DNA from: Dromaius novaehollandiae
Taxonomy: Eukaryota; Chordata; Aves; Casuariiformes; Dromaiidae
Direction of reading: 5' to 3'
DNA length: 64,000 bases
Assembly (NCBI RefSeq): GCF_036370855.1
Contig: NC_088103.1
Coordinates: forward strand, 6,325,404-6,389,403
Every line of letters begins with the position of its first letter. Position 1 is the first letter of the stretch. Made by a program: the position numbers and the translations under genes. Shown piece after piece: positions 62,789 through 62,895 of the stretch. The notes beneath the pieces are model-generated. The model was not told the DNA's origin. It did not search any database and saw only the letters and a program-made list of their open reading frames with translations.

Positions 62789-62803
62789 CTAGACTCCCAT
62801 CAT
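62789..62803 (-). CDS. uORF2 in the PTEN 5' leader, four codons M-M-G-V
   Basis: The sequence ATGATGGGAGTCTAG starts with two consecutive ATG codons and stops after four codons. The human leader carries ATGATGGAAGTTTGA (M-M-E-V-stop) as recalled, after the same 18 bases CTCTCGGAAGCTGCAGCC. The shared block covers 62821-62797. The -3 base of the first ATG is G (AGCCATG). It is likely to act on ribosome flow rather than through its peptide. Confidence 0.65.
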
Positions 62804-62895
62804 GGCTGCAGCTTCCGAGAGGGGAGGAAGCGCCGCCCCGCCCCCTCCGCCGCCGCCTCCTCCGCCGCCGCCCCGAGAAAGTAGTCCCGCCACAT
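62800..62895 (-). CDS. uORF1 in the PTEN 5' leader (31 codons), conserved peptide
   Basis: The ATG at 62895-62893 opens a 31-codon frame ending in TGA at 62802-62800. The peptide begins MWRDYF, has an Ala/Glu-rich middle and ends SRKLQP. The human PTEN leader, as recalled, has a uORF of the same 31 codons beginning MWQDS and ending SSRKLQP. The DNA around the ATG (GGCGGTGATGTGGC) and the whole 3' end are shared. The TGA overlaps the first ATG of the next uORF (ATGA overlap), which would favour coupled termination and reinitiation. It is in the same frame as PTEN, 265 codons above Met1. Confidence 0.65.
   Translation of the reverse strand: MWRDYFLGAAAEEAAAEGAGRRFLPSRKLQP

What the first reader, a model, noticed from the sequence alone, without database searches (positions are those of the whole stretch)
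62789..62895. Two overlapping uORFs in the PTEN leader conserved from bird to human with the same lengths
Seen: a 31-codon uORF (MWRDYF...SRKLQP) ends in a TGA that overlaps the first ATG of a 4-codon uORF, M-M-G-V-stop. Recalled from the human PTEN mRNA: a 31-codon uORF beginning MWQDS and ending SSRKLQP, whose TGA overlaps M-M-E-V-stop. The 25 bases at 62821-62797 look identical between species. A fixed length, fixed overlap and conserved peptide ends in an otherwise diverged leader suggest selection. The ATGA overlap suggests reinitiation control of PTEN dosage, possibly with a peptide-sensing role.
Basis: partly seen in the sequence, partly recalled or inferred. Interest (0 to 1): 0.75.

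Follow-up and report, generated by a model that had tools for sequence, protein, structure and literature searches.

The report
Known PTEN upstream reading frames, bird
A bird PTEN gene carries the same short upstream reading frames already described in front of the human gene; the letters around their start codons match closely but most of the 31-residue peptide does not, so this looks like conserved start-site or promoter control rather than a new peptide sensor.

Summary
The sequence is as described: minus strand, uORF-A (62895-62800, 31 codons) ends in a TGA inside the tandem ATGATG of 4-codon uORF-B (62803-62789), 703 nt before the PTEN ATG at 62100. Both are known in human: uORF-A corresponds to micropeptide MP31/MLDHR, uORF-B to 'uORF1' of Tzani 2016. 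Length is not fixed: mouse MP31 is listed as 35 aa. The overlap adds little, since ATGATG always holds TGA in one frame. Against a human leader recalled from memory, 26 letters ending at the tandem ATG are identical, but codons 5-25 of uORF-A show no codon-position pattern (differences 9/12/13 of 21; 16 nonsynonymous, 3 synonymous). The human CAGE start lies between the two start codons, so most PTEN mRNAs would lack ATG-A. The one sign for translation is uORF-B's stop, kept in place while changing TGA to TAG. Verdict: real, mostly known; selection on start-site or promoter letters likely, peptide selection unsupported by this two-sequence test, A-to-B reinitiation possible only on longer transcripts.

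The parts
62800..62895 (-). uORF-A, 31 codons, TGA; counterpart of human MP31/MLDHR
62789..62803 (-). uORF-B, tandem ATG, MMGV, TAG; counterpart of uORF1 in PMC4892431
62797..62822 (-). 26-nt run identical to the recalled human leader
62889..62902 (-). 14-nt run around the uORF-A ATG identical to the recalled human leader
62712..62747 (-). uORF-C, 11 codons; likely counterpart of the 45-codon uORF2 in PMC4892431 by order and context
   Evidence: the alignment does not pair the two ATGs
62497..62499 (-). in-frame ATT at -399, in the run CTGTCACCATT shared with the human PTEN-M start
62022..62100 (-). PTEN coding part of exon 1

Best explanation
This is the bird copy of the known PTEN leader with its known uORFs. 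Most PTEN mRNAs probably start within uORF-A, as reported in human, so the first AUG that a scanning ribosome meets is the tandem ATGATG of uORF-B. It is read for four codons, stops at once, and many subunits resume scanning, so it helps to set how many ribosomes reach uORF-C, the AUU start of PTEN-M and the PTEN AUG. uORF-A can be read only from longer transcripts, where it would give an MP31-like peptide and end inside the tandem AUG. The shared letters reflect constraint on start-site context and on the promoter or transcript 5' end, not on most of the peptide. Shown here: anatomy, 26-nt identity, kept stop, no codon pattern. Reported by others in human: translation of the tandem-AUG uORF, uORF effects on PTEN forms, MP31. 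Inferred: that the bird start site and ribosome traffic resemble the human ones.
For: The bird leader from 63200 to the main ATG holds four ATGs, which are these three uORF starts, one doubled; the recalled human leader holds the same plus one at -893. Identity, without gaps: 30 of 33 around the tandem ATG, 14 of 20 at the uORF-A start, 24 of 52 between, 20 of 40 before and 11 of 25 after. uORF-B keeps its stop in register, TGA in recalled human, TAG here. Main exon 1: 10 synonymous, 0 nonsynonymous, 16 identical of 26 codons; last 7 codons of uORF-A with the stop: all identical; codons 5-25: 16 nonsynonymous, 3 synonymous, 2 identical. PMC4892431: many footprints on the 4-codon uORF, reporter severely lowered when its stop is mutated, CAGE start at +187 of RefSeq, which on the recalled leader is -845, between ATG-A (-910) and ATG-B (-818).
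Against: No bird transcript, CAGE or footprint data. The human initiator-like letters at -845 are not kept in the bird, so its start may lie elsewhere, even upstream of uORF-A. The 92-nt spacing is exact and gap-free in both and mouse MP31 differs by whole codons: mild evidence for a kept frame. The middle is slightly more alike than shuffles in letters (24 of 54, mean 17.9, P 0.036). Reviews report MP31 acting as a peptide. In the human reporters, removing the tandem AUGs changed output by less than 10%, and arsenite made little difference, so metering by uORF-B alone is weak there. All bird-human numbers rest on a recalled human sequence with one unexplained mismatch in uORF-A.
Confidence: 0.6

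Rival explanations
1. One reading: uORF-A is translated from the main mRNA, its peptide is selected, and termination in ATGA hands ribosomes to uORF-B, setting PTEN dosage, perhaps by sensing the peptide.
For: Exact 92-nt spacing and open frame in bird and recalled human; whole-codon difference in mouse; both ends of the peptide alike, 14 of 31 residues identical; MP31 reported as a working peptide in reviews.
Against: No codon-position pattern, 16 nonsynonymous to 3 synonymous in codons 5-25, middle peptide not above shuffles (P 0.12); charge differs (K+R/D+E 4/1 recalled human, 5/4 bird); human CAGE start downstream of ATG-A.
Confidence: 0.15
2. DNA-level constraint: the 26-nt block is a promoter element at the transcription start (for example an ETS-like CGGAAG or a YY1-like GCCATGATGG site; both motif names recalled, not tested), and the uORFs ride along.
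For: The block begins 8 nt after the human CAGE start as placed on the recalled leader; no synonymous change in it; listed promoter variants fall in the stretch.
Against: The run stops right after ATGATGG and uORF-B keeps a stop with changed letters; human footprints and reporters show that the tandem AUG is used. No binding data were examined.
Confidence: 0.2
3. Chance retention without function of the uORFs.
For: In DNA this GC-rich, frames stay open by chance; the overlap is automatic.
Against: 26-nt run, simulated frequency 0.0008; 52-mammal conservation.
Confidence: 0.05

Closest known systems
MP31 / MLDHR (UniProt C0HLV8 human 31 aa, C0HLV9 mouse 35 aa, as listed in PMC10199267), micropeptide of the PTEN leader
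   Same: Same place in the leader, same ends MW.D and SRKLQP, TGA inside the tandem ATG, same length as human (human letters recalled)
   Different: 16 of 21 codons in 5-25 differ nonsynonymously from recalled human; no evidence of translation or function in the bird
uORF1 of the PTEN leader, Tzani et al. 2016 (PMC4892431)
   Same: Four codons, tandem AUG, same upstream letters
   Different: MMGV-TAG here, MMEV-TGA in the recalled human
uORF2 of the PTEN leader, Tzani et al. 2016
   Same: Next start in order, like context GGGAGATGAG
   Different: 11 codons here, 45 in human; the two ATGs are not paired in the alignment

Membership tests
MP31/MLDHR orthologues | AUG-started frame at this place of the PTEN leader with the same ends | tested here: met
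   against a recalled human sequence
MP31/MLDHR orthologues | peptide conserved along its length | tested here: not met
   14 of 31 residues identical; middle 18 residues P 0.12 against shuffles
MP31/MLDHR orthologues | mitochondrial peptide limiting lactate dehydrogenase | not testable with these tools
   seen in review passages only; original papers not held
PTEN tandem-AUG uORF (Tzani uORF1) | four codons with tandem AUG in the PTEN leader | tested here: met
PTEN tandem-AUG uORF (Tzani uORF1) | close to the 5' cap and covered by ribosomes | not testable with these tools
   no bird 5' end or footprint data; human as told
Termination-reinitiation coupled pair | stop and start overlap | tested here: met
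   automatic for ATGATG in that frame
Termination-reinitiation coupled pair | both frames on the same mRNA in quantity | tested here: inconclusive
   human CAGE start lies between the two ATGs; bird unknown
Peptide-sensing (arrest) uORF | amino acids conserved through synonymous change | tested here: not met
   two sequences only

The most novel reading that the evidence does not exclude
PTEN's promoter and the two start codons form one switch older than the bird-mammal split: starting transcription upstream or downstream of ATG-A decides whether an mRNA makes an MP31-like peptide and delivers ribosomes to the tandem AUG by termination, or offers the tandem AUG as the first start. PTEN dosage and the peptide would then be set together by start-site choice.
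Probability: 0.2. Interest if true: 0.5.

Novelty: new member of a known kind. Interest (0 to 1): 0.27.

Why it matters
It carries the known PTEN uORFs from mammals to a bird and separates what is kept (tandem AUG, its upstream letters, its early stop) from what is not (most of the MP31 peptide, the length of the third uORF). That bears on whether MP31 is an old peptide or a by-product of a conserved start region, and it draws attention to the human MP31 start codon lying upstream of the main CAGE start. No bird comparison was seen in the listings and passages, and the words chicken, bird and reptil do not occur in the main text of PMC4892431; the original MP31 papers are not held and may contain one.

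Tried and rejected
RNA structure: folds of 65 nt from the human start position gave z -0.89 (recalled human) and +1.04 (bird) against mononucleotide shuffles, with different structures; the tandem ATG is somewhat more unpaired than the average of the first 300 nt (0.63 and 0.49 against 0.32 in both). No conserved fold is claimed.

Further species: a 24-base core gave 0 matches in viral contigs and 0 in genome contigs; no vertebrate collection is on hand, so the amniote alignment asked for could not be made. The 25-base core occurs once in the window's own genome.

Papers: the original MP31 papers are not held. The promoter search listed nothing that I used. A printed human peptide was sought: one paper lists the accessions only, and the other hit is unrelated by its title. 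That PTEN might be a TOP mRNA was considered; the listing was not followed up, so this is neither supported nor excluded.

Recalled human leader: 9 of 11 published bases agree; -903 holds A where the list prints GA, -895 holds T where it prints A/C, so single letters of the recalled uORF-A may be wrong.

Full report
What is there. The minus strand of the window carries the first coding exon of PTEN with the main ATG at 62100, and two PTEN_C2 exon matches lie downstream on the same strand (2 of 8 matches in the genome). Between 63200 and the main ATG the leader has four ATGs: 62895, 62803, 62800 and 62747. They open a 31-codon frame with TGA ending at 62800 (uORF-A), a 4-codon frame with tandem ATG and TAG ending at 62789 (uORF-B), and an 11-codon frame ending at 62712 (uORF-C). 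The genome has 1.47 Gb in 271 contigs. Three exon matches to a recalled chicken lysozyme are 75, 77 and 80% identical, and a fourth elsewhere 49%, which fits a bird; the species was not determined.

What is known. Tzani et al. 2016 (PMC4892431; I saw the abstract, part 1 of 3 of the Results, part 1 of 2 of the Discussion, and 12 of 18 search passages) describe two conserved AUG-started uORFs in human PTEN: a 4-codon one with tandem AUGs and a 45-codon one, boxed in an alignment of 52 mammals, with many footprints on the first. Changing the first one's stop to a sense codon severely lowered the reporter; changing its AUGs lowered it by less than 10%; removing the 45-codon uORF raised it more than twofold; arsenite made little difference. 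The 31-codon frame was later published as MP31. I saw this in passages of reviews (PMC11020647, PMC10199267, PMC12455275) and in a passage of the HGNC paper that names it MLDHR (PMC12807706). One review lists 31 aa for human and 35 aa for mouse. The original papers are not held.

The human comparison and its limits. It reproduces the published starts at -519, -438, -393 and -216 and the 4- and 45-codon uORFs, and gives 160 where the paper prints 161 codons for the stop-mutated frame. Of 11 published variant bases 9 agree; one miss is the other listed allele, and one (-895, inside uORF-A) is unexplained. Every bird-human number below depends on this recalled sequence.

Constraint. Over 866 aligned leader columns identity is 60.5%. 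The stretch from before ATG-A to past the uORF-B stop aligns without gaps. A 26-nt run covers the end of uORF-A and the tandem ATG; runs of 26 or more arose with frequency 0.0008 in simulations with independent columns. A 14-nt run covers ATG-A, which by itself is not exceptional: the mean longest simulated run is 12.3, and runs of 11 to 18 occur elsewhere in the leader, at the AUU, at the main ATG and in GC repeats. Between the two runs identity is 24 of 54 against 17.9 in shuffles (P 0.036), so the middle is only just recognisably alike; its peptide is not above shuffles (P 0.12). Differences in codons 5-25 are 9, 12 and 13 of 21 by codon position, whereas main exon 1 has 2, 0 and 9 of 26. 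None of the last 6 sense codons of uORF-A changed; at the exon 1 rate of 10 in 26, about two changes are expected and none has a chance of about 0.05 (arithmetic). This is constraint on letters, not visibly on codons. With two sequences, selection on the end residues cannot be excluded.

Equal length and overlap. ATGATG contains TGA in one frame. Given both start sites, uORF-A ends in that TGA whenever the spacing is in the right frame (one in three) and the middle has no stop (63-71% of shuffles), roughly one in four by chance. Spacing is 92 nt in both. Mouse MP31, four codons longer, shows that length is not fixed, though a whole-codon difference would again keep the frame.

The stop of uORF-B. 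After ATGATGG the leaders diverge (11 of 25 letters in columns 105-130 after ATG-A), yet the fifth codon is a stop in both: TGA in recalled human, TAG in the bird. If the second and third letters both change at random, one of nine outcomes is a stop (arithmetic). This is the one sign here that speaks for translation rather than letters, and it is a modest one.

Start site. PMC4892431 places the main human start at +187 of the RefSeq mRNA by CAGE, mRNA-seq and the majority of ESTs. On the recalled leader this is -845, downstream of ATG-A (-910) and 27 nt before ATG-B (-818). If the same holds in birds, most PTEN mRNAs lack ATG-A. The human letters at that start are not kept in the bird, so this remains an inference. 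Listed promoter variants at -895, -861 and -834 and -867 fall in this stretch; I saw passages only, and did not test whether they act through a uORF.

Mechanism. Best reading: the tandem AUG is the first start met on most transcripts, its four codons let subunits resume, and uORF-C, the AUU and the PTEN AUG share the flow. uORF-C has 11 codons instead of 45, so it should repress less in this bird; that is a testable prediction. Its ATG is paired with the human one by order and context, not by the alignment. uORF-A would add an MP31-like peptide only on longer transcripts. Coupling of A to B is possible there but is not needed for any observation, and peptide sensing has no support here.

Verdict. 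A true and correctly read observation, mostly known in human and mouse. What the searches did not show is the bird comparison and what it separates.

Noticed in passing
62497-62499, and the frame 62100-62799, minus strand: The AUU start of PTEN-M is kept (CTGTCACCATT, -399), but the in-frame CTGs lie at -675, -672, -615, -372, -198 and -30, none near where the human PTEN-L (PTEN-alpha) CUG aligns. The AUU form may be the older one.
   Followed up: partly
62712-62747, minus strand: The third uORF, 45 codons and inhibitory in human, has 11 codons here.
   Followed up: partly
62888, minus strand (codon 3 of uORF-A): The bird codon is CGG (Arg) where the recalled human has CAG (Gln); a human polymorphism listed as -903GA is at that base.
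   Followed up: no
62802-63617, plus strand: A 271-codon open frame runs antisense to uORF-A and the region upstream; in DNA of 80-90% GC long frames are expected, and no relative was sought.
   Followed up: no
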